Source: Deltaproteobacteria bacterium
Lineage (GTDB): Bacteria > Desulfobacterota > Binatia > UTPRO1
NCBI GenBank assembly: GCA_029262315.1
Contig: JAJCZP010000182.1
Location: forward strand, 1 to 33,299
Reading direction: 5' to 3'
Length of the DNA: 33,299 bases
Of the stretch, positions 4,651 to 20,625 are shown one piece after another (the stretch's first letter is position 1; each line of letters opens with the position of its first letter). Both the position numbers and the translations under genes were made by a program. Below the pieces are notes generated by a model. That model saw only the letters and a list, made by a program, of their open reading frames with translations. It was not told the DNA's origin and ran no database searches.

Positions 4651-4809
4651 AGCTGGCGCGATCAGAATGTCGGCCAGGAATGCGCTGACCGTCGCGAAGA
4701 AGGCGAGCCGGCCAAAGGCGACGACATCGTGCAGGTAGCCGAGGGTGAGCACCGCCCATCCGGCGGTCAACACGAGCGACGCGAAGAGGAGGGCCGAACC
4801 CGTCGCGGT
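4651..4809 (-). pseudogene. Remnant of an MMPL/RND transporter C-terminus
   Basis: The minus strand encodes about 53 residues that align without gaps to the last membrane helices of the MMPL permease at 9110-11548 (matching segment 9170-9328). I count 37 identities over the final 51 residues, including FGRLAFFAT and AFLADILIAPA. The match starts just after the stop codon of the selenoprotein gene and stops abruptly at IAPA, where the intact paralogue continues with its cytoplasmic tail. Downstream the frame runs into unrelated sequence and then out of frame over the ABC gene. There is no start or Shine-Dalgarno sequence, so this is an orphan fragment left by a duplication or deletion. Confidence 0.7.
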
Positions 4810-4810
4810 G

Positions 4811-5617
4811 TCAGCTCGCGGGCTTCGGGTCCTTGTCTACGGCGCCGAAAGCGTCGGCGTGCTCGATCAATGCCACCATGCGGCGCAGGGTCTCCTTCTG
4901 GCCGTCGACATCGTGCGGACGTCCGACGGTCGCACCGATGTTCAGGCGTCGGATCACCTGGCGCGGCGGACGCGCCGTGCTGCTAAGCGGCGGCATGACC
5001 GAGACCAGTGCCGTGGGCATCCCCGCGAACTCGAGCCCTCTTGCGATCAGACTCACGGTCTGATGGCAGACAGGTCACGAGGGGACGAGCAGCACGGCTT
5101 CGACCCCGTCATTCTGCAGCTTCTCGACGATGCGCGGGATCGTGTGCTCGACGAGCGGGACGACGTTCGGCGCCAGCCCCATCAGCACGAGCGAGTCGTG
5201 CGCGACCGAGGCCAGCTCGCCGTCGGCGGCCATCTCCTTCAGGCGGTCGAGCGGCAGGTTCGCATTGAAGTCCTCTTTGGCAAAGCGATGATCATAGCCG
5301 AAGTGATCGATCCGGAACCTCGACGAATCGGCATCCAGGCCGATCACGTGAAAGTCGGGAGGTGCGTCGCCGAATTCCGGGAGTCCGGTGAACGGCACAT
5401 GCTCGCCCTCGATCGAGTAGCCGCCGGTCGTCACCAGACCGAACCGCGTCGCCGCCGCCGGCTTGGTCAGGCGCACGAACGGGTCGCCCGTCGTCTCGAC
5501 CCACGGATAGGTGGCGAAAGCTTCCTTTGCCTTCCCCTGGGAGAACAGCGCGGTCGCCGCGTCCTTCCAAACCTCGAACTTCGGCATCCACGCCGCGAGA
5601 GCGGCTGCATCACTCAT
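4811..5617 (-). CDS. Selenoprotein of the glycine/sarcosine/betaine reductase B family (in-frame UGA = Sec)
   Basis: The gene encodes 268 residues if the TGA at 5077-5075 is read as selenocysteine 181. The two flanking open stretches are in the same frame, and the bridge reads Sec-Pro-Val-Cys-His-Gln-Thr, the redox U-x-x-C-H-Q motif of GrdB-like (GSGR_B) proteins. The N-terminal half has family features: GLVTTGGYSIEG, an FGYDHRF segment, then NLPLDRLKEMAADGEL. The C-terminal half continues through IARGLEFAGMPTALVSV. ATG 5617 has GGAGG seven bases upstream, whereas an in-frame start at 5710 adds a non-conserved extension. A SECIS-like hairpin begins just after the UGA. These short family members are probable thiol/selenol oxidoreductases; the true substrate is unknown, and the multi-subunit glycine reductase genes are absent here. 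The organism must carry SelA-D elsewhere. Confidence 0.85.
5042..5077 (-). promoter_or_regulatory. Sec codon and SECIS-like hairpin
   Basis: The UGA codon occupies 5077-5075. The RNA downstream folds into a perfect 7-bp stem (AUCAGAC / GUCUGAU) with loop CGUGA at 5057-5053. Beyond one C-C mismatch the stem continues for three more pairs, spanning 5068-5042. The loop begins 18 nt after the UGA and carries a G at its second position followed by U. This fits what is known of bacterial SECIS elements: hairpin directly 3' of the UGA, apical loop about 16-37 nt away, G and U in the loop. Confidence 0.75.
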
Positions 5618-5739
5618 TGAGTGCCTCCGATGCGTGTCCGTGCCGCCCGGAACAGGCCGGACGATCTCGTCGGGTTCGTAACGGAGACGTCCCCCCAATT
5701 CAATCCGCATGGATCAACGGACTGCGCCCCGCGTCGGCT

Positions 5740-6279
5740 TCAGGGCGCCCACAGGGCGGGCTGGCGCCATGGCCGTGGGACGGCAAGCGTGCCGCGGCTT
5801 GGTGTCGCAGCGTTGCACAGGTCAAGCGACTGCCATGCTCCGCTCCACTGCGCCGGCAGGGGATACGGCGGCGCGACGCGTGTCTCAGACACGAAGCCCA
5901 AGCGGCCGTAGTAGGCGGGGTCGCCGAGCACGTAGACGTGGACCACGCCGACGGTTTCTAGCCGTTGCAAGCCGGCGCGGACAAGCGCGCGGCCGATGCC
6001 CTGCTTCTGCCGGGCGGGGGCGACGGCGAGCGGCCCCAGGAGGGCGACCTTGTTCCTACTCCCGCCAACACTGCATGTCGTGAAGATGACATGCCCCACC
6101 AACGACGAGCCGATGAACCCGGCGAGCGAGAGCACGACTGGCGCTTCCTGCAACAGCGCCCTCACCACCGGCAGCAGATCCTCGTCCGGAAACGCTTCCG
6201 GATAGAGCGCCTCGATCAAGGCCAACTCGCGAGGGTCACTCTTGCGGATTTCAATCTGTTCCGTTTGGAGGTCGGCCAC
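5740..6279 (-). CDS. GNAT-family N-acetyltransferase (YhbS-like)
   Basis: This 179-residue cytoplasmic protein has the GNAT fold order. An N-terminal substrate helix region (EALYPEAFPDEDL) is followed by a beta strand (LVGHVIFTTC) and the acetyl-CoA pyrophosphate loop Q91-K-Q-G-I-G96 with the following helix RALVRAGL. A YYGRLGF segment typical of the YhbS branch comes next, and the C-terminal PWRQPALWAP is also common there. The acceptor substrate is unknown. The apparent start is GTG 6279, 6 bp after the upstream MMPL stop, with no clear Shine-Dalgarno sequence, so translation is probably coupled to the MMPL-cNMP gene. Confidence 0.85.
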   Translation of the reverse strand: MADLQTEQIEIRKSDPRELALIEALYPEAFPDEDLLPVVRALLQEAPVVLSLAGFIGSSLVGHVIFTTCSVGGSRNKVALLGPLAVAPARQKQGIGRALVRAGLQRLETVGVVHVYVLGDPAYYGRLGFVSETRVAPPYPLPAQWSGAWQSLDLCNAATPSRGTLAVPRPWRQPALWAP

Positions 6280-9109: not shown

Positions 9110-11548
9110 TCAGCCTTCAGCCTTCGATTGTGGCGTGCCGTCGCGCGGGCGGGACACGAGCACCATCATCGCTGGGGCGATCAGAATGTCAGCAAGGAAC
9201 GCGACGGTCGTCGCAAAGAAAGCGAGCCGGCCGAAGTTCATGACGTTCTGCATGTAGGAGACGATGAGCACGAGCCAGCCAGCGGCCAGCACAACCGAAG
9301 TGAAGAGAAGCGCCGACCCCGTCGTCTCGAGCGTCAAGCGCACGGCTTCATGCGCATCCCCGCTGCCCTCATAGTAGCGCTGGAACTTGTGCATGAAGTG
9401 GATCGTGTCATCGACGACGAGACCAATGAGCACGCAACCAATCAGCAGCGTCGAGTTGTCGATGGGGATGTCGAGCCAGCCCATGAGGCCAAGTGTCATC
9501 AAGATGGGGACGAGGTTCGGGATCATGGCGAGGAGTCCCCGCTTGAGATTGCCGATCAGCACGACCATGAGCGGCGTGATAATGAGCAACGCGATGACAT
9601 AGGAGCGCGCCATCGTGACGTTCACTACCGCGAAGGTCCGCGCGAAGAGCGTCGTAAGCCCCGTCGAGCTGATCTCCGCGCGGTTCCCGAGAATCCGCCG
9701 GAAACGGTCCTCCACGCGCTCGACAAAGTCTGCGTAGTGGATCGCGTCCACCATCGGAATGCGCAGGCTCACGCGCGCCAGGCGAAACTGGCTGTCTGTC
9801 AGTTCTTCGAGGTCGTCGGTCCCGCTCTGTTCGAAGAGGAGGAGTTCCTGGGCAACGAGCGCGCGGCTCTCGGGGATCGCGTAGTGGGTCTGGCGGTTCT
9901 CGTTCAGCGCCCGGTGGGTCTCCTTGACCACGTCGGTGATCGATATTGCCTTACCGATCAGAATCTCCGGATCTTCCATGGCCTCGACCGACAGCATGGC
10001 GCGCTCGATGCGTCGCAGAGTCTCGGGGTCATGGAGACCGTTCTCGCGGCCGGTGTCCACGACCATCTCGAGGGTGTCCGAACCACCCAGGTGCGCCTCC
10101 AAATACTCCACGTCGAGGCGCACGGGATCGTCTTCAGGGAACCAGCCCAAGTAGTACTGAGAGAAGCGCAAGTTGCCGATACCTGCGGAACAGACGGCCG
10201 CGACCACGGCGCAAGCCGCCAGCACGCGCCAGGGATGGCGGGTCGACATGCCGCCGAGTTGCGCGAGGAAGCGGCCTAGCAAGCGTTCGATGTGCGTCAC
10301 GCCGGCACGCCGAGGCTTCAAGGGGACCATCGCAAGCAATGCCGGCAGCAATGTCACCGAATAGACGAAGGCCAACATGATGCCAATCGGCGCAACTCGG
10401 CCCAGATTGGCCACCTGCGCGAGATCCGCTGACGCGAAGGAGATCAATCCCCCCGCCGTCGTCAGCGCTGCCATCATGACGGCCAGCCCCGAGTGGCCGA
10501 GAGCCATGGGAATGGCGTCTTCTTTGGCCTCACCCGCGGCCAGCCGTTGGTAAACGATGGTGAGGACGTGGACCGTGCTGCAGATTCCTACGGTGAGCAA
10601 AAGCGAGGGCAAAATCTGTCCCGAGACGGAGGTCGGAATTCGGGCCACAGCCATGATGCCGAAGGTCGTCAGTTGTGAGGCAAGGACGACGAACAGCGGC
10701 AACACCACCCCGGAGATGCGACGGAAGAGCACGTAGAGCAGGAACGCAATGGCGCACAGCGCTCCCGGCATGGTCCGCATCATGTCACGCATCATGTTCT
10801 GGTTGGTGTGGTAGCTCGTGACGTTGCCACCCGACAGGTGAATCTCGAAGTCGGGCGCCTGGTGCCGGGCTATCACGCGCGTGACCGCGCGGACGAGTTC
10901 CCCACGTTCCTCCTCGGTCAGGAGCGCGAGGTCGAGACTGCCAGCCCCAGTATCATCGGCACGATTCTCATCGTCGAAGCCCGCGAGCACTTCGTCGGAG
11001 GATTCGTCCGTGCTGGAATGCATCTGCGATCTAATGGTGACAGTCGTGATCGTCCCGGCCGCATCGATGAGGGTGTTCTCGTAGAGTGGGGTGTCCCGGA
11101 CCCGACGCTCGAGCTGTGCCAGATCCGCGTCGCTCTCGGGCCAGGTCTCGGTCAGGTCTTCGACGATCAGCTGATCACCTTCCCCGCGCGTGTTGCGCGC
11201 ATTGAGCAGGCTCGTCACTTCGTCCAGATGGGGGAGTTCGCGCTCGAGGTCCTCGTGGAGGGCGCGCAACTTTTCGAGAAAAGCGAGATCAAAAACGCGC
11301 GGCGGGTGAATCGCGAGCAAGATCATCTGGTCCTGGCCAAATTGGTCTCGGAACTGGTCGTAAGTCTCGCGCGCCGGATCGTTGGGCCGCAAGAAGCTCT
11401 CGACGGAATTGTCCGCTGTGAGATTCGGAACCTGGGAGATGAAGAGTCCGCTGACCAACAGCATGGCAACCGCGACAACCAACCGCCGGCGCACCACGAA
11501 GTGCCCCCATCGCTCGAAAGCCTGCTCGATGTTCGCGTGGATTCGCAA
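9110..11548 (-). CDS. MMPL/RND-family permease
   Basis: This 812-residue inner-membrane permease is a close paralogue, across the whole length, of the protein at 15912-18356 (814 residues). Both begin with RWGHFVVRRR and share DTGRENGLH, DVVKETH.ALNENR and GLMGWLDIP. Two repeats of one-plus-five helices flank large periplasmic loops. The second half carries the DD proton-relay site (GLVVDDTIHFMHKF); the first half has GICSTVHVL instead. The start is inferred as TTG 11548 because it reproduces the paralogue's N-terminus; the frame stays open to 11899, but that part is antisense to the divergent isomerase gene and shows no homology. It is the first gene of the leftward group. Confidence 0.85.
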   Translation of the reverse strand: MRIHANIEQAFERWGHFVVRRRLVVAVAMLLVSGLFISQVPNLTADNSVESFLRPNDPARETYDQFRDQFGQDQMILLAIHPPRVFDLAFLEKLRALHEDLERELPHLDEVTSLLNARNTRGEGDQLIVEDLTETWPESDADLAQLERRVRDTPLYENTLIDAAGTITTVTIRSQMHSSTDESSDEVLAGFDDENRADDTGAGSLDLALLTEEERGELVRAVTRVIARHQAPDFEIHLSGGNVTSYHTNQNMMRDMMRTMPGALCAIAFLLYVLFRRISGVVLPLFVVLASQLTTFGIMAVARIPTSVSGQILPSLLLTVGICSTVHVLTIVYQRLAAGEAKEDAIPMALGHSGLAVMMAALTTAGGLISFASADLAQVANLGRVAPIGIMLAFVYSVTLLPALLAMVPLKPRRAGVTHIERLLGRFLAQLGGMSTRHPWRVLAACAVVAAVCSAGIGNLRFSQYYLGWFPEDDPVRLDVEYLEAHLGGSDTLEMVVDTGRENGLHDPETLRRIERAMLSVEAMEDPEILIGKAISITDVVKETHRALNENRQTHYAIPESRALVAQELLLFEQSGTDDLEELTDSQFRLARVSLRIPMVDAIHYADFVERVEDRFRRILGNRAEISSTGLTTLFARTFAVVNVTMARSYVIALLIITPLMVVLIGNLKRGLLAMIPNLVPILMTLGLMGWLDIPIDNSTLLIGCVLIGLVVDDTIHFMHKFQRYYEGSGDAHEAVRLTLETTGSALLFTSVVLAAGWLVLIVSYMQNVMNFGRLAFFATTVAFLADILIAPAMMVLVSRPRDGTPQSKAEG

Positions 11549-11792
11549 TGCTCCGCTTCGCCTCCCGCCACGCGACGCGTGGGCCCATAGAAGTGGGATG
11601 ATCGCGCCCGCCAAGAATGCGGAACCGACGTGCCGGTGCGGCTTCCGAGCTAGCGGTCCGGTCGACTGTCCTCGTAGGCGCGCGAGACGAAGATACAGGA
11701 GTCGGCGGGAATTGAAATCACTTCCTCCACGGTCGCTTCCCGCCACCGCTGCTGTTGGAGTATGTAAGGCGTCACGTGGGCGATACGCGGCG
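11549..11792. promoter_or_regulatory. Divergent intergenic region, MMPL / isomerase
   Basis: These 244 bp separate two divergently transcribed starts (TTG 11548 leftward, ATG 11793 rightward) and must hold both promoters. I could not pick out a convincing -35/-10 pair, operator dyad or small gene. Confidence 0.4.
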
Positions 11793-12671
11793 ATGAAACT
11801 ACTCCGAGAACCCCTCGTGCACTTTCTGATACTGGGCGCGGGGCTGTTCCTGCTCTTCAGCATCGTCGGTGATTCGGGCGACCGACCAACCGACAGCATC
11901 GTGGTCTCCGCCGGCCGGGTCTCGCAACTGACCGAAGCCTTTGCGCGGAGCCGGCAGCGACCACCGACGGAGGAAGAGCTGGAGGGGCTGATCGAGGATC
12001 ACATCCGCGAAGAAGTCTACTACCGCCAGGCGCTGGCGATGGGCCTCGACCGGGACGACACGATCGTACGACGGCGTCTGTGCCAGAAGCTCGAGTTTTT
12101 CTCGAACGATCTCGTGGCCGCAGTCACTCCGACTGAGAAGCAACTCCAAACCTACCTCAGCGAACACGACGACGTCTTCCGGCGTCCCACGCGGTTGTCC
12201 TTCCACCAGATCTACTTCGACCAGAATCGTCGTGGCGGGCAGGCGGCTCGGAACGCCAACGCTCTCCTTGCACGACTGAACGCGGTGGGTTCGGAGGTCG
12301 ATACGGCTGCTCTCGGAGACTCGCTGATGCTACCCCGTGACTACGACCTGATTCCCGAGGTCGAGATCGCCAATCGATTGGGCAACGAGTTTGCCCTCGC
12401 GTTGGTCGAACTTCCCGTCGGACGATGGTCGGGCCCTGTGGAGTCAGGCTTCGGGCTGCACCTGGTCTTGGTTCGCGAGCGACGATCGGGCTCGCTTCCG
12501 GCGCTGACCGAGGTCCGTGACGCAGTGGAGCGCGAATGGCGGAACATGCGCCGCCAAGAAGCGAGCGTGGTGTTCTACCGGGGGCTCCGTGACCGCTACG
12601 AAATCCATGTCGAACGCCCCCGAGTCGGCGAGGGTGAGTACGATTCGAAGGTGGCGGAGCTGCAAAGGTGA
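11793..12671 (+). CDS. Membrane-anchored parvulin-type peptidyl-prolyl isomerase
   Basis: This 292-residue protein has a single N-terminal membrane anchor (about 8-26, LVHFLILGAGLFLLF) and a periplasmic body. A SurA/PpiD-like helical part (about 35-120, with PTEEELEGLIEDHIREEVYYRQALAMGLDRDD spread over its middle) precedes a parvulin domain (about 128-255, SFHQIYF to FGLHLVLVRE), followed by a C-terminal helix. It probably assists folding of exported proteins. ATG 11793 places the anchor directly at the N-terminus; the frame is open upstream but antisense to the MMPL gene. The stop overlaps the HupE gene start by four bases (GTGA), so the two are co-translated. Confidence 0.82.
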   Translation: MKLLREPLVHFLILGAGLFLLFSIVGDSGDRPTDSIVVSAGRVSQLTEAFARSRQRPPTEEELEGLIEDHIREEVYYRQALAMGLDRDDTIVRRRLCQKLEFFSNDLVAAVTPTEKQLQTYLSEHDDVFRRPTRLSFHQIYFDQNRRGGQAARNANALLARLNAVGSEVDTAALGDSLMLPRDYDLIPEVEIANRLGNEFALALVELPVGRWSGPVESGFGLHLVLVRERRSGSLPALTEVRDAVEREWRNMRRQEASVVFYRGLRDRYEIHVERPRVGEGEYDSKVAELQR

Positions 12672-13694: not shown

Positions 13695-15629
13695 TCAGGG
13701 GTTGTACCAGATGGGTGACGTGTAGGCCCTCTCTTGCGTCGAGACAGGGGCGCCCTCAGGAATGGAAATCCCAAACCGGAAAGCCTCGTGCGTGGACCAC
13801 CGGGGCGTTGGTATCTCGATCACGCGAGCGTAGTAGAACGCACGCTGCTTCGCATTGAACTCGGGGTCTGTCCACACCGTGGCCAACTCGGGCAAGCCGA
13901 TGGTGTTCGTATAACTGGCGGTCGCAGCATCCACGGTGTTGCCCACCGCCGGAAGCGTGCCCTTTCTTCCGGGCTTGCGGTCTCCCGACCAGGCCACGTC
14001 GTACACCTGCTCGTGTGTCTCGCCCTTCTCGTCCAGCCAGCCCTTGATGATCTGGATGCGGTCGAGGTTGCCACCAATCGGATCCCGGAGAGCGAACACC
14101 ATGAACGACGGCGCTGCATCACCCGTGCGGGCTTTCAGGTCGCCACCCATCGGCACGCCCTTCTTGTACCCCGCAAACGCTGGCTGCCGGTTGTCGAGAT
14201 CCGTATCGGTGAAGTCCCAGCCGCCAAAGAATCGGACGGTCATACGGCTTCCGGTCGTGCCGTAGACTTCCTTGCGTTCCATTGCGTCGAAGATGGACTT
14301 GCGTGTGTTCTCTTTGGCGTACACCGCCGCAAGCCCCGATGAGACCATACCCCACCCCATGATCGTGCCTTTTGCATTCTTCAGGAACGGGTGGTCCATC
14401 CGCGAGGGTTTCGGCTCGGCGCCGCTGTGCTTGCCGAAGAAATTGTCTTCCTGCGCGGTGGCCAGGCCGGTGTGGCTATCCGTGGAGCCAACCACACCGA
14501 ACTTGTAGGGGTTGGTCCCCAACCTCGCTTCGATCGCCAGACCGTTCTTGAGTGCTTCGCGGGCGTACTCGCCGGCCAGCATCTCGTTCGTCTTCACCGT
14601 GGGGACCGTATCCAGATTTCCGATGTCCCATGTCTCATAGTCGGCGAACTCGTCTTCGGGCGAGAGGTAAGGGTGGGCTTCGCCATCACCCTTGATCTGG
14701 GTGATTTCGTAGAGCGGTTCCCACTTGATGCGCTCGGTGACGTAGTCGTCGTCCAGCTTCCGGCCATCGTACTGGGCGTCGACCGGGAACATGATCCCGT
14801 TGGACAGGTTGCCGTTGTGTGCCAACGCCAACACGTCGCCGCCGGTCTTCGCCTCGTAGCTGGCAAGCCACTTCCATAGATCACGCGGGTTGGGACTGCC
14901 GAACGGAGGATAGGTCGTGTAGGGCACCATCTGTGAGCCCTTGTCCGCCCCGTCGCGATAGATGACGACCCGGTGCATGTTGTTGCCGGTGACCAGCGAG
15001 GTCCATTCGTAACCAATAAAAGCGGTGTAGGTGCCCGGATCGTTGTATTCCTCGGCGGCATCGATCGTTCGTTGCCACACATCCCTGTACGGAGCCGTGT
15101 CCGGCCAGTACATCAAGTTGTCGGGGAACTTGCCGTTCGCGAATAACCCGATCATTTCATACGCGACCTCGGGACCCTCGCCCGCCTTGATCCGGTCGTA
15201 CCAGTCCTTGCCTTTCGGGACATCGAGGATGTGCTTCTTGCCTGCGAACAAGTCGAGGAAGAAACCCATGTTGTCCGAGTGGTCCGCAACTACGAGCCAG
15301 TCCAGCGGCCTGGACAGTCGCACCGGGATCCCCGTAGAAGAAATCACTTCGTCGCCACGAGCAAAGCGATGGGCGTCTTCCGGAGTCAACCGGGCACCAA
15401 AGGCACCGGCATCGAACGAGTTGCCGGTATGCAGGTGCGAATCGCCCCACAGCGGCCGGGTTCCGAAACCGCGCCCAGCATAGGGCGAATAGCTCTCCCC
15501 GGTGTACTGCTCCGAAAGCATGTCCTTGGGGTCCTGCGGGGGTGGAATCTGCGCCTGGACCAGGCTGGCAAGAAGCATACACGCCACGAACGCGAAGACC
15601 GTCATCGCCGACCGCGAATCTGTATTCAT
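13695..15629 (-). CDS. DUF3604-domain secreted protein (PHP-like metal site)
   Basis: This 644-residue exported protein has a signal peptide (about 1-26, cut after LVQA). The rest is one DUF3604 domain with PHP-phosphoesterase-like metal-ligand motifs in order: WGDSHLHTG, VADHSDNMG, ALAHNGNLSNG and GSTDSHTG. These His/Asp clusters could bind a two- or three-metal centre, making a periplasmic hydrolase likely, but no substrate is established for the family. ATG 15629 has AGGTGG seven bases upstream. It sits between the HupE gene (convergent) and the MMPL/LolA/DUF1302 operon (divergent, 282 bp apart). Confidence 0.88.
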   Translation of the reverse strand: MNTDSRSAMTVFAFVACMLLASLVQAQIPPPQDPKDMLSEQYTGESYSPYAGRGFGTRPLWGDSHLHTGNSFDAGAFGARLTPEDAHRFARGDEVISSTGIPVRLSRPLDWLVVADHSDNMGFFLDLFAGKKHILDVPKGKDWYDRIKAGEGPEVAYEMIGLFANGKFPDNLMYWPDTAPYRDVWQRTIDAAEEYNDPGTYTAFIGYEWTSLVTGNNMHRVVIYRDGADKGSQMVPYTTYPPFGSPNPRDLWKWLASYEAKTGGDVLALAHNGNLSNGIMFPVDAQYDGRKLDDDYVTERIKWEPLYEITQIKGDGEAHPYLSPEDEFADYETWDIGNLDTVPTVKTNEMLAGEYAREALKNGLAIEARLGTNPYKFGVVGSTDSHTGLATAQEDNFFGKHSGAEPKPSRMDHPFLKNAKGTIMGWGMVSSGLAAVYAKENTRKSIFDAMERKEVYGTTGSRMTVRFFGGWDFTDTDLDNRQPAFAGYKKGVPMGGDLKARTGDAAPSFMVFALRDPIGGNLDRIQIIKGWLDEKGETHEQVYDVAWSGDRKPGRKGTLPAVGNTVDAATASYTNTIGLPELATVWTDPEFNAKQRAFYYARVIEIPTPRWSTHEAFRFGISIPEGAPVSTQERAYTSPIWYNP

Positions 15630-15911: not shown

Positions 15912-18356
15912 ATGACGGGTCGCGATCGCATCGAGAGACTGTTTACGCGCTGGGGGCATTTCGTCGTCCGCCGGCGCTGGGCCACGCTTGCGCTCACCCT
16001 GGCCGTGACGGCGGGGCTCCTGAGCTTTCTCCCCAATCTCCGCCTCGACAACGCCGTCGAGGCGTTCCTGAAGCGTGACGATCCGGAGCGCCTCCGCTAC
16101 GACGAGTTTCGCGCCCGCTTCGGCGGCGACAACGATGTCCTGGTGATCCTCCACCCGCCCGAGATCTTCGACCTCGGCTTCCTCGATACCATGAAGCGTT
16201 TCCACGAGGACATCGAGCGTGAGGTGCCGTACGTCGAGGAAGTCACGAGTCTCGTCAATGCCCGGAGCACGTACGGGAAGGATGAGGAACTGGTCGTTGA
16301 AGATCTGATGGAGGCGTGGCCCGAGACGGCCGCGGAGCTCGTTGCGCTCGAACAGCGGGTGCTCGCCAACCCGCTCTACCAGAACATCCTCATTGCGGAG
16401 TCCGGTGCGTACACCACGGTAACCATCACGCCGTTCACCTACTCCGCGGCCGGCCCGACAGGCGGCGAGCTGGCGGGGTTCGACGACGCGCAGGCAGACA
16501 CTGCGTTCCCAGAAACCCTGACCGACCGCGAGGGGAGGGAGCTGGTTGTCGCCTTGCGCCAGGTGGTCGCACGGTACGAGGGGCCCACCTTCGAGGCCCA
16601 CATGGTCGGCGGTCCGGTCGAGAACTACCACCTGGATGCTGCCATGACACGAGACGTCGCGGTGTTTCAGACCCTGTCGATTCTCATCGTGGCCGCCCTG
16701 CTCTTCCTGCTCTTTCGAAGGGTCTCCGGCGTGGTCCTGCCCGTTGTCGTCGTCAACGCCGCCATGCTCGCCACGCTCGGTGTCATGGCGTGGATCGACA
16801 TCCCCATGTCGATGACGCTGCAGATCGTGCCCCCGTTCCTGACGGTGGTGGGAATCTGCGATGCGATCCACATCCTGGCGATCGTCTATCGGCGCATGGG
16901 CGAGGGAGAGTCGCAGGAGGAGGCCATCCCATACGCGCTTGGTCATTCCGGGTTGGCGGTCGTCATGACGAGCGTCACGACCGCTGCGGGCCTCCTGAGC
17001 TTCAGCGTCGCCGAGATGCTCCCGATCGCGAACCTCGGCATCATCGCGCCAATCGGCGTCATGCTGGCCATGGCCTACAGCCTGGTCTTGCTGCCCGCGC
17101 TCCTCGCGGTCCTCCGACTGAGGCCTGCGGTCCCCGGCGACGTCCGTACGCGCCGCGGCGCGACCGATCGCTTTCTCGACTGGGCAACGAGGGTTTCCAC
17201 CACGTACCCGTGGCGCGTCGTCGGCGTCGCCGCGGGGATCCTCGTCGTCTTCGCGGGCGGGGTCTCTAAAGTCTACTTCTCCCAGGACATTATCCGGTGG
17301 TTCCCGGTGGGTGACCCACTGCGGACCGCTGCGGAGCTTGTCGATCGCGAGTTCGGGGGTGCGTCGACGCTCGACGTACTGATCGACACGGGGCGCGAGA
17401 ACGGACTGCACGAGCCTGACACCCTCCAGCGCATCGAGCGGGCGATGCGCCATGTCGAGACACTCGCGATCGGGGACCGGCCGATCGGCAAATCGGTCTC
17501 GATCGTGGACGTGGTGAAGGAGACCCACCAGGCGTTGAACGAGAACCGCGCCGCGTACTATCGGCTGCCCGACGAGCGCATGTTGATCGCGCAGGAGATG
17601 CTACTGTTCGAGAACAGCGGCACCGACGATCTCGAGGACTTGACCGACAGTCGGTTCCAGACGGTCCGCATGATCGTGCGGACCCCGTGGGTGGATGCCA
17701 TGCTCTACCCCGACTTCCTCGACGAGGTCCGCCGGGACTTCAGCGAGATTCTGGGCCCAGGCCTCCCGTTCGAGCTCACGGGCGGGGCACCGCTGTACTC
17801 CCAGGTGTTCAAGAACATCGTCCTCAGCATGGCCCGCTCGTACGTGTTCGCGCTCGTGGTCATCACGCCGCTGCTCGTGCTGCTGGTCGGGAACCTGCGG
17901 CGCGGCCTTGTGGCAATGATCCCCAACCTGATTCCGGTGTTCATGGTGCTGGGTCTCATGGGGTGGTTGGACATTCCGCTCGACATGACGAGCCTGCTGA
18001 TCGGCGGCATCGTGATCGGCCTGGCGGTCGACGACACGATCCACTTCATGCACAAGTTCAACCGGTACTATGAGGACACCGGGAGTGCGACGGAGGCCGT
18101 GCGGGAGACGCTCGCCACGACCGGCCGCGCCCTCCTGTTCACGTCGCTGGTCCTCGGACTGGGCTTCGCCGTGTTCTTCTTCGCCTACATGAACAACACC
18201 TCCTGGTTCGGAGTGCTCGTGAGTTTCGCGTGCCTGGTGGCGTTTCTGGCCGACGTTCTGGTGGGGCCGGCCCTGATGGTGCTAGTTACTCCCGAGGTCG
18301 AGCCGAGCGCTCAGCCTGCGCGTGAAGACACGGCAGCATGGGGCGCCGTGCACTGA
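15912..18356 (+). CDS. MMPL/RND-family permease of an MMPL / LolA-like / DUF1302 operon
   Basis: This 814-residue inner-membrane permease is a paralogue of the minus-strand protein at 9110-11548. It has twelve predicted helices in two 1+5 blocks. The first block has GICDAIHILAIVYRR, with one acidic residue; the second has GLAVDDTIHFMHKF, the full DD proton-relay motif. The large periplasmic loops (about 40-220 and 445-620) would bind the cargo. Because the next two genes encode a LolA-like carrier and an outer-membrane barrel, it probably energises lipid or hydrophobic-molecule movement across the envelope. ATG 15912 has only a weak AGGA about 13 bases upstream. Confidence 0.87.
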   Translation: MTGRDRIERLFTRWGHFVVRRRWATLALTLAVTAGLLSFLPNLRLDNAVEAFLKRDDPERLRYDEFRARFGGDNDVLVILHPPEIFDLGFLDTMKRFHEDIEREVPYVEEVTSLVNARSTYGKDEELVVEDLMEAWPETAAELVALEQRVLANPLYQNILIAESGAYTTVTITPFTYSAAGPTGGELAGFDDAQADTAFPETLTDREGRELVVALRQVVARYEGPTFEAHMVGGPVENYHLDAAMTRDVAVFQTLSILIVAALLFLLFRRVSGVVLPVVVVNAAMLATLGVMAWIDIPMSMTLQIVPPFLTVVGICDAIHILAIVYRRMGEGESQEEAIPYALGHSGLAVVMTSVTTAAGLLSFSVAEMLPIANLGIIAPIGVMLAMAYSLVLLPALLAVLRLRPAVPGDVRTRRGATDRFLDWATRVSTTYPWRVVGVAAGILVVFAGGVSKVYFSQDIIRWFPVGDPLRTAAELVDREFGGASTLDVLIDTGRENGLHEPDTLQRIERAMRHVETLAIGDRPIGKSVSIVDVVKETHQALNENRAAYYRLPDERMLIAQEMLLFENSGTDDLEDLTDSRFQTVRMIVRTPWVDAMLYPDFLDEVRRDFSEILGPGLPFELTGGAPLYSQVFKNIVLSMARSYVFALVVITPLLVLLVGNLRRGLVAMIPNLIPVFMVLGLMGWLDIPLDMTSLLIGGIVIGLAVDDTIHFMHKFNRYYEDTGSATEAVRETLATTGRALLFTSLVLGLGFAVFFFAYMNNTSWFGVLVSFACLVAFLADVLVGPALMVLVTPEVEPSAQPAREDTAAWGAVH

Positions 18357-18406
18357 GCGACCAGGACCCGGCAAACGGGCCGCCTGGTATCGGAGGATCC
18401 ATCACG

Positions 18407-19192
18407 ATGACGATCGTACTTGCCCTGCTGCTCTGCGCCCTGACGCCTGCGCTGGTACACGCCGCCCCGACGGGCCGCGAGATCATGGAGCGGGTCGACG
18501 CTCGCGACGACGGCGACCGGCAGACCCAGGACATGGAGATGACCCTGATCGACAAACGGGGCAACCAACGGGTCCGGACGATCCGCCTGTGGAGTCGCGA
18601 CGACGGCGAGAACGAGCACGGGATCCTCTTCTACCTGAGCCCGGCGGACGTGAAGGACACGGGTCTGCTCACCTACGACTACGACGACCCCGATCGCGAC
18701 GACGACCAGTGGCTGTACCTCCCGGCGCTCAAGAAGACGAAGCGCATCGCCTCCACCGACAAGAGCGGCAGCTTCATGGGCTCCGACTTCTCCTATGCCG
18801 ACATGACCGAGCGCGACCTCGACCGGTACACCTACCGTCTGATGAAAGAGGACGAGGTCGGCGGGGTCAAAGTGTGGCAAGTCGAGGCCATTCCCAACGA
18901 GAAGGAGATGGACGAGACCGGCTATACGAAGTCCGTGGTGTTCGTCCGTCAGGACAACGACTTCGTCATCCGAGGCGTTCACTGGCTGAAGAAGGGCAAT
19001 CGCCTCAAGTACCTCGACGTGAAGAAGCTCGAGCAGATCGACGGCATCTGGGTGGCGACGGAAACGCACATGACGACCAAGGCCGGCAAGGCGACGCTGC
19101 ACAAAACGGTGATCCGCACCCGTAACGTGCGCTTCGACCAGGAAATGGATCCCGACGACTTCACCCTCCGCAAGCTCGAGGCCGGACTCTGA
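18407..19192 (+). CDS. LolA-like outer-membrane lipoprotein-sorting family protein
   Basis: This 261-residue periplasmic protein has a signal peptide (about 1-20, cut before APTG). The mature part follows the LolA_like plan: GREIMERVDARDDG, a long antiparallel beta sheet, then the conserved block WLYLPALKKTKRI, GSFMGSDFSYADM and DLDRYTYRL. Such proteins are thought to hold a lipid or acyl group in a half-barrel, so this is the natural periplasmic carrier between the MMPL permease and the barrel. ATG 18407 has GGAGG ten bases upstream; a longer reading from 18338 overlaps the permease stop and buries the signal peptide. It lies 50 bp after the permease and 38 bp before the barrel gene. Confidence 0.87.
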   Translation: MTIVLALLLCALTPALVHAAPTGREIMERVDARDDGDRQTQDMEMTLIDKRGNQRVRTIRLWSRDDGENEHGILFYLSPADVKDTGLLTYDYDDPDRDDDQWLYLPALKKTKRIASTDKSGSFMGSDFSYADMTERDLDRYTYRLMKEDEVGGVKVWQVEAIPNEKEMDETGYTKSVVFVRQDNDFVIRGVHWLKKGNRLKYLDVKKLEQIDGIWVATETHMTTKAGKATLHKTVIRTRNVRFDQEMDPDDFTLRKLEAGL

Positions 19193-19230
19193 CCTGGCAC
19201 GGGAGGGCGCCGCGTCTCGGCGCATGTACC

Positions 19231-20625
19231 GTGCTCCTCGTAGGAACGCTGCTCGCTCCGCTCGTCACGTGCGCGACCGAGCTCGATGACGCGCTCGAGG
19301 GTTTCGAGGAAGACGAGGAGGCCTTCGCCGTCGACGACGCGTCGACCTCGTTCGCGGATACCACTGAGCCGGAACGCCCGTGGAGCCTGACCGGGAGCGT
19401 AAGCCTCGCCGCGGCCATCAACTACCTCGATCACGAGTCCGCGACCGGTACCGACTACACCGGCCTGCAGAAGCTGCGCACCCGCCTGAACCTGCAGCTC
19501 GACTTCGACCTCCCGTGGTCCTGGCAGGGGCGATTCGCGGGCTACACCTTCTACGACGCCGCCTATCGCATCCAGGGCCGGAACGACTACACCGACGCCG
19601 TCATCGACACCTACGAGTGGGAGATCGACTCGCAGGAGATGTGGCTGCAGGGCGAGGTCGTCGAGGATCTGGATCTCAAGATTGGTCGGCAGATCGTGAA
19701 CTGGGGGCGCTCGGAGACTCTACGGGTCCTCGATGTCCTAAACCCGCTCGACAACCGGGAGCCGGGACTCGCCGACATCGAGGATCTGCGTCTGCCGGTG
19801 ACGATGGTGCGGGCGGACTACTATTGGAACGCCTGGTCGCTGAGTCTGATTTCCCTCCCCGAGATACGTTTCGACCGGCGACCGCCGGTCGGCAGTGATT
19901 TCGTACCGTTCGAGGCCCAGCCCCCGGAGCGGAAGCCCGGCACATCGTTCGCGGACACCGAGTGGGCCGCGAGGGCGGCGGGCGTCTTCGAGGGCTGGGA
20001 CGTCTCGCTGCACGTCGCGCGCTACTGGAACGACACGCCCTACGTGGTCTCGCGCGCGACATCGCCAACGGGTCTCGTCGAGAAACACAGCCGCCTCTTT
20101 CTGGCCGGCGCCGGCGGCAACTACACGATCGGGAGTTGGCTCTTGAAAGCGGAACTCGCCTATCTCAGCGGCATCGACTACCCGGTCGTCGACCGCGTCG
20201 AGGCGACTCCCGCGGGCCCGAGACCCGTCGTCGGCACGCTCGAGCGCTCGCGCCTCGATGTCATGGGGGGCATCGAGTACTACGGCATCATCGACACGAC
20301 CATCAGCCTCGATGTCGCGAATCGCTATATCAACGACTTCGACAGCCGGATGCGAACGTTCGATGCGCAGGAGAACTCGCTCGAGAGCGCGCTCCGAATC
20401 AGCTCCGACTTCATGAACGCACGCCTCCACACCACAGTGCTCGGCATCATGTTCGGCGAGCGCGCCCAGGACGGCAGTGTCGTCCGCCTCCAGGCCAGCT
20501 ACGATCTCCGCGACGCCCTGGTGCTGACCGGGGGGATTCTCCTCTTTTGGAACGGGGATCCGGAGATCGTCAGCGACATCGACGACAACGACCGGATCTT
20601 CTTCGACATCAAGTACAGCTTCTAG
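19231..20625 (+). CDS. DUF1302-family outer-membrane beta-barrel protein
   Basis: This protein of 464 residues has a signal sequence (about 1-16), an acidic linker (DDALEGFEEDEEAF), then alternating-hydrophobicity strands ending in a C-terminal aromatic (FFDIKYSF), the signature of an outer-membrane barrel. Family features include KIGRQIVNWGRSE and LNPLDNREPG. It is the third gene of the MMPL/LolA-like/DUF1302 unit and would give the outer-membrane step. The start, GTG 19231, is tentative: a GGGAGGG lies too far upstream (19201-19207), and an ATG at 19224 is out of frame. Confidence 0.83.
   Translation: MLLVGTLLAPLVTCATELDDALEGFEEDEEAFAVDDASTSFADTTEPERPWSLTGSVSLAAAINYLDHESATGTDYTGLQKLRTRLNLQLDFDLPWSWQGRFAGYTFYDAAYRIQGRNDYTDAVIDTYEWEIDSQEMWLQGEVVEDLDLKIGRQIVNWGRSETLRVLDVLNPLDNREPGLADIEDLRLPVTMVRADYYWNAWSLSLISLPEIRFDRRPPVGSDFVPFEAQPPERKPGTSFADTEWAARAAGVFEGWDVSLHVARYWNDTPYVVSRATSPTGLVEKHSRLFLAGAGGNYTIGSWLLKAELAYLSGIDYPVVDRVEATPAGPRPVVGTLERSRLDVMGGIEYYGIIDTTISLDVANRYINDFDSRMRTFDAQENSLESALRISSDFMNARLHTTVLGIMFGERAQDGSVVRLQASYDLRDALVLTGGILLFWNGDPEIVSDIDDNDRIFFDIKYSF

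What the first reader, a model, noticed from the sequence alone, without database searches (positions are those of the whole stretch)
5042..5617. Selenoprotein: GrdB-like oxidoreductase with UGA-encoded Sec and an adjacent SECIS-like hairpin
The sequence shows an in-frame TGA inside a conserved segment, giving a Sec-Pro-Val-Cys-His-Gln redox motif. A hairpin whose loop begins 18 nt after the UGA carries G and U in its loop. Automated annotation would split it into two genes or call a pseudogene. It is a short, stand-alone member, away from any glycine reductase complex, next to a GNAT and transport genes.
Basis: partly seen in the sequence, partly recalled or inferred. Interest (0 to 1): 0.7.

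Follow-up and report, generated by a model that had tools for sequence, protein, structure and literature searches.

The report
Stand-alone PrdB-like selenoprotein gene
A bacterial gene reads an in-frame UGA stop codon as the 21st amino acid selenocysteine, helped by an RNA hairpin just after it; it is a distant member of a selenoprotein family known since 2005, so it is real but not surprising.

Summary
On the minus strand a 268-residue gene (5617 to 4811) is interrupted only by UGA at 5077-5075 (residue 181), inside U-P-V-C-H-Q-T. In 30 genes of the family (this one included) the same codon is UGA; in 80 others it is Cys. A 7-bp hairpin with a 5-nt loop (5064-5046) follows 10 nt after the UGA. 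It pairs fully in 27 of 30 UGA genes, with compensatory changes, but in only 3 of 80 Cys genes, as expected of a bacterial SECIS element. The genome has selA and selB side by side and a fused selD. No tRNA-Sec was found in the 298-contig draft, most likely an assembly gap. The protein is closest to D-proline reductase PrdB (TIGR04483, 119 bits, below its cut-off of 300) rather than GrdB proper. It resembles the "PrdB" UxxC selenoproteins already catalogued in Sargasso Sea and Global Ocean Sampling data (PMC1088965, PMC2398784). Most likely role: a stand-alone selenol/thiol oxidoreductase with unknown substrate. It is a new, quite divergent member of a known kind; interest is low.

The parts
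4811..5617 (-). PrdB-like selenoprotein gene, 268 residues with U181, ATG start, terminal TGA
5075..5077 (-). in-frame UGA read as selenocysteine (residue 181)
   Evidence: same codon is TGA in 30 genes of the family (this one included) and TGC/TGT in 80
5046..5064 (-). SECIS-like hairpin: stem AUCAGAC/GUCUGAU, loop CGUGA
   Evidence: covariation in Sec homologues, lost in Cys homologues
5624..5628 (-). Shine-Dalgarno GGAGG, 6 nt before the ATG
   Evidence: read directly
5740..6279 (-). GNAT acetyltransferase gene upstream; neighbour, functional link not shown
   Evidence: PF00583
6286..9087 (-). MMPL/RND transporter with cNMP-binding domain; neighbour

Best explanation
A functional selenoprotein of the short, stand-alone PrdB-like branch of the GrdB/PrdB superfamily. 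Ribosomes meet UGA at codon 181, and SelB with Sec-tRNA recognises the hairpin 11-29 nt downstream and inserts Sec (inferred from homology and covariation; not shown biochemically). The Sec lies in a loop between a strand and a helix of an alpha/beta domain and forms a U-x-x-C pair with Cys184. It most likely works as a selenenyl-sulfide/thiol redox centre that reduces a small substrate or exchanges electrons with a thiol partner (inferred); the substrate is unknown. It is probably not a D-proline reductase subunit, since the PrdB cut-off is not met and no PrdA match was found.
For: Sec/Cys exchange at exactly this column in 110 genes. Hairpin pairing 98.8% in Sec homologues with 20 double-change cells (shuffled mean 7.7, 0/500 reach it), against 68.8% in Cys homologues, about the same as shuffled (67.9%). 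All seven pairs in 27/30 Sec against 3/80 Cys genes. Residues beyond the UGA invariant in the aligned set: P218, R219, G228, G232, P234, Q240. selA, selB and selD over cut-off. Profile matches to PrdB and GRDB. UxxC PrdB selenoproteins described before. Structure model mean pLDDT 84, Sec181 just before helix 184-197.
Against: No tRNA-Sec found in the draft by Rfam model, two whole-genome patterns, or ARAGORN on part of the genome. Five genomes of the same family lack the gene, tRNA-Sec and selA. The protein is a very long branch without close relatives, so selection on this very gene could not be measured. No solved structure matches by sequence, and fold matches are weak.
Confidence: 0.9

Rival explanations
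1. A gene recently broken by a nonsense mutation (Cys codon TGC/TGT to TGA), or a sequencing error, in a Cys-type homologue.
For: tRNA-Sec not found in the assembly; one base separates TGA from TGC/TGT; the gene shares the Ser that follows QTV with the Cys homologues.
Against: The complete 7-bp stem is rare in Cys homologues (3/80) and rare by synonymous chance (1.1%); 29 relatives carry UGA at the same codon; selA, selB and selD are present; the frame downstream is open and conserved.
Confidence: 0.06
2. A true PrdB subunit of a D-proline reductase.
For: Best NCBIfam match is TIGR04483 PrdB over residues 47-260.
Against: Score 119 against a cut-off of 300; no PrdA match in the genome, though that search had no positive control; no prd genes among the neighbours tested.
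Confidence: 0.04

Closest known systems
PrdB UxxC selenoproteins of the Sargasso Sea and Global Ocean Sampling sets (PMC1088965, PMC2398784)
   Same: UxxC motif, pfam07355, Sec and Cys members, common in environmental bacteria
   Different: Those sequences were not compared directly here; this one is a divergent lineage, at most 39% identical to any relative found
D-proline reductase PrdB (TIGR04483)
   Same: Similar length (profile 238 positions) and alignment over residues 47-260; PrdB is also a UxxC selenoprotein
   Different: Far below the curated cut-off; no PrdA found; no prd operon
Glycine/sarcosine/betaine reductase GrdB/GrdF/GrdH (PF07355, TIGR01917/01918)
   Same: C-terminal part aligns, including the Sec region
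   Different: Lacks the first 250 or so profile positions; the UxxCxxC reported for GrdB is UPVCHQT here

Membership tests
Bacterial selenoprotein (UGA = Sec) | in-frame UGA aligned with Sec/Cys in homologues, conserved downstream frame | tested here: met
Bacterial selenoprotein (UGA = Sec) | hairpin just 3' of the UGA, conserved by compensatory change | tested here: met
   no Rfam family matches it
Bacterial selenoprotein (UGA = Sec) | SelA, SelB, SelD in the genome | tested here: met
Bacterial selenoprotein (UGA = Sec) | tRNA-Sec in the genome | tested here: inconclusive
   not found (ARAGORN on about 1.7 Mb fetched); draft of 298 contigs; 30/30 relatives' tRNA-Sec recognised as control
Bacterial selenoprotein (UGA = Sec) | selenium present in the protein | not testable with these tools
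   needs labelling or mass spectrometry
GRDB superfamily (PF07355) | score over Pfam gathering cut-off | tested here: met
   33.6 bits against 22, residues 97-178 to profile 265-345 of 347
D-proline reductase PrdB (TIGR04483 equivalog) | score over curated cut-off 300 | tested here: not met
   118.7 bits
D-proline reductase PrdB (TIGR04483 equivalog) | PrdA partner in genome | tested here: inconclusive
   no match, but nothing matched in the controls either
Glycine reductase GrdB (TIGR01917/01918) | full-length match over cut-off | tested here: not met
   36.8 and 43.7 bits against 602.2 and 65.45

The most novel reading that the evidence does not exclude
The organism makes selenocysteine with SelA and SelB but with a tRNA-Sec so unusual that Rfam, ARAGORN and pattern searches miss it, and this gene is one of its Sec genes.
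Probability: 0.05. Interest if true: 0.5.

Novelty: new member of a known kind. Interest (0 to 1): 0.2.

Why it matters
It adds a very divergent UGA-bearing lineage to the PrdB-like selenoproteins, a family abundant in environmental bacteria whose substrate is not established for the stand-alone members, and the Sec/Cys pairs give a clean set for defining the SECIS hairpin of this family. Standard annotation would cut the gene at residue 180.

Tried and rejected
First tRNA-Sec pattern used a gap that was too long for the variable arm and was replaced (then; its four hits have three mismatches each in the anticodon part, about what chance gives, as the reversed control also hit once). The nine RF01852 hits in the genome lie below the gathering score, and in the eight fetched loci ARAGORN finds only ordinary tRNAs such as Ser, Leu, Tyr, Thr and Gly. 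No PDB relative by sequence; Foldseek's best hit has TM 0.31 and VIA's best Z is 8.6 (LacI-type domain), judged a common alpha/beta arrangement only. Conserved operon partner: none seen; neighbours of the sampled homologues differ (luciferase-like oxidoreductases, SBF transporter, cyclase, PPK2, peptidase S58). In the quick tree all Sec genes fall on one side and all Cys genes on the other, but this gene's branch is about 6.4 changes per site, so its place and the direction of Sec/Cys change are left open (the careful tree was not finished).

Full report
What is there. On the minus strand an ORF with ATG at 5617, preceded by GGAGG (5628-5624), runs to UGA at 5077-5075 and, in the same frame, on to a terminal UGA at 4813-4811, giving 268 residues with U181. 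The finding's interval stops at 5042, but the gene goes on for 87 codons past the UGA.

Is the UGA a Sec codon? A search of 98 genomes (the window's own and relatives) found the family in 59, nearly every match with exactly one TGA inside. A scan of named bacterial genomes gave 80 loci, mostly Bradyrhizobium, Rhodopseudomonas and other Pseudomonadota. Aligned to the window protein, residue 181 is TGA in 30 loci (including this one) and TGC or TGT in the other 80, and nothing else. The two sets were found by different searches, so their proportions say nothing about nature. The codons after the UGA encode residues conserved in both sets.

Is the hairpin a SECIS? It lies at 5064-5046: stem AUCAGAC/GUCUGAU, loop CGUGA. 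Energy alone is unremarkable. The comparison decides: all seven pairs form in 27/30 UGA genes and in 3/80 Cys genes. On 29 ungapped UGA sequences 98.8% of cells pair; two pairs change on both sides (for example CAGAC/GUCUG, CAGUC/GACUG, CAGGC/GCCUG), 20 double-change cells against 7.7 in shuffles (0 of 500 reach it), and sliding the partner by one to three columns drops pairing to 45% or less. On 33 Cys sequences pairing is 68.8%, close to shuffles. Caveat: the UGA sequences are related, so the shuffle counts are not probabilities. The loop G and U are invariant in both sets and so do not discriminate. Rfam has no family for the element.

Machinery. selA and selB lie side by side on contig 145 and selD, fused behind an NADH-dehydrogenase-like domain (named from the sequence, not profile-tested), on contig 79; all exceed their cut-offs. 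tRNA-Sec was not found with RF01852, two whole-genome patterns, or ARAGORN on the parts fetched (the same program recognised 30 of 30 relatives' tRNA-Sec). In several relatives tRNA-Sec lies next to selA, but it does not here. Two other relatives, G007 and G024, also have selA and the UGA gene but no detected tRNA-Sec, so drop-out from drafts seems likely. Five same-family genomes lack gene, selA and tRNA-Sec together, which is consistent with the trait being held or lost as a whole.

What it is. NCBIfam puts PrdB first (TIGR04483, 2.6e-34, 118.7 bits, cut-off 300), then GrdF/GrdH/GrdB at 37 to 52 bits; Pfam GRDB passes its gathering score over the C-terminal end of the profile. Two Cys homologues also score PrdB first and below cut-off. 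It is therefore a member of the superfamily but not shown to be a D-proline or glycine reductase. PrdA was not found, without a working control. The model (mean pLDDT 84) places residue 181 at the turn between strand 174-178 and helix 184-197, a usual place for a redox pair (general knowledge of thiol redox motifs); the role is inferred.

Known? Yes. PrdB UxxC selenoproteins were the third most abundant known family in the Sargasso Sea set (42 genes, PMC1088965) and had 235 Sec and 110 Cys members in the GOS set (PMC2398784). A Sec-containing proline reductase is listed for Anaeromyxobacter dehalogenans and Geobacter uraniumreducens (PMC1794560), and reviews of 2022 and 2026 list the family. 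What is particular here is the divergence (at most 39% identity to any relative found, long branch).

Noticed in passing
window 4651-4803 (-): Remnant of an MMPL/RND transporter C-terminus, 73% identical over 51 residues to the end of the MMPL gene at 9110-11899, starting just past the selenoprotein stop; the selenoprotein and GNAT genes may sit inside an old tandem transporter array.
   Followed up: partly
L018 1393-3651 (-), own genome contig 79: SelD is fused behind what looks like an NADH-dehydrogenase-type domain (752 residues), with Cys, not Sec, in its motif MRCGGCAAK.
   Followed up: partly
own genome, 298 contigs: selA and selB are present but no tRNA-Sec was found; relatives G007 and G024 show the same for selA.
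   Followed up: yes
window 13695-15629 (-): Full-length DUF3604 protein (1e-239), near a third MMPL gene, a LolA-like lipoprotein-sorting gene and a DUF1302 gene at 15912-20625 (+).
   Followed up: no
L050 (relative G007): A UGA homologue whose motif is U-P-L-D-H-Q-T: the resolving Cys of UxxC is Asp.
   Followed up: no
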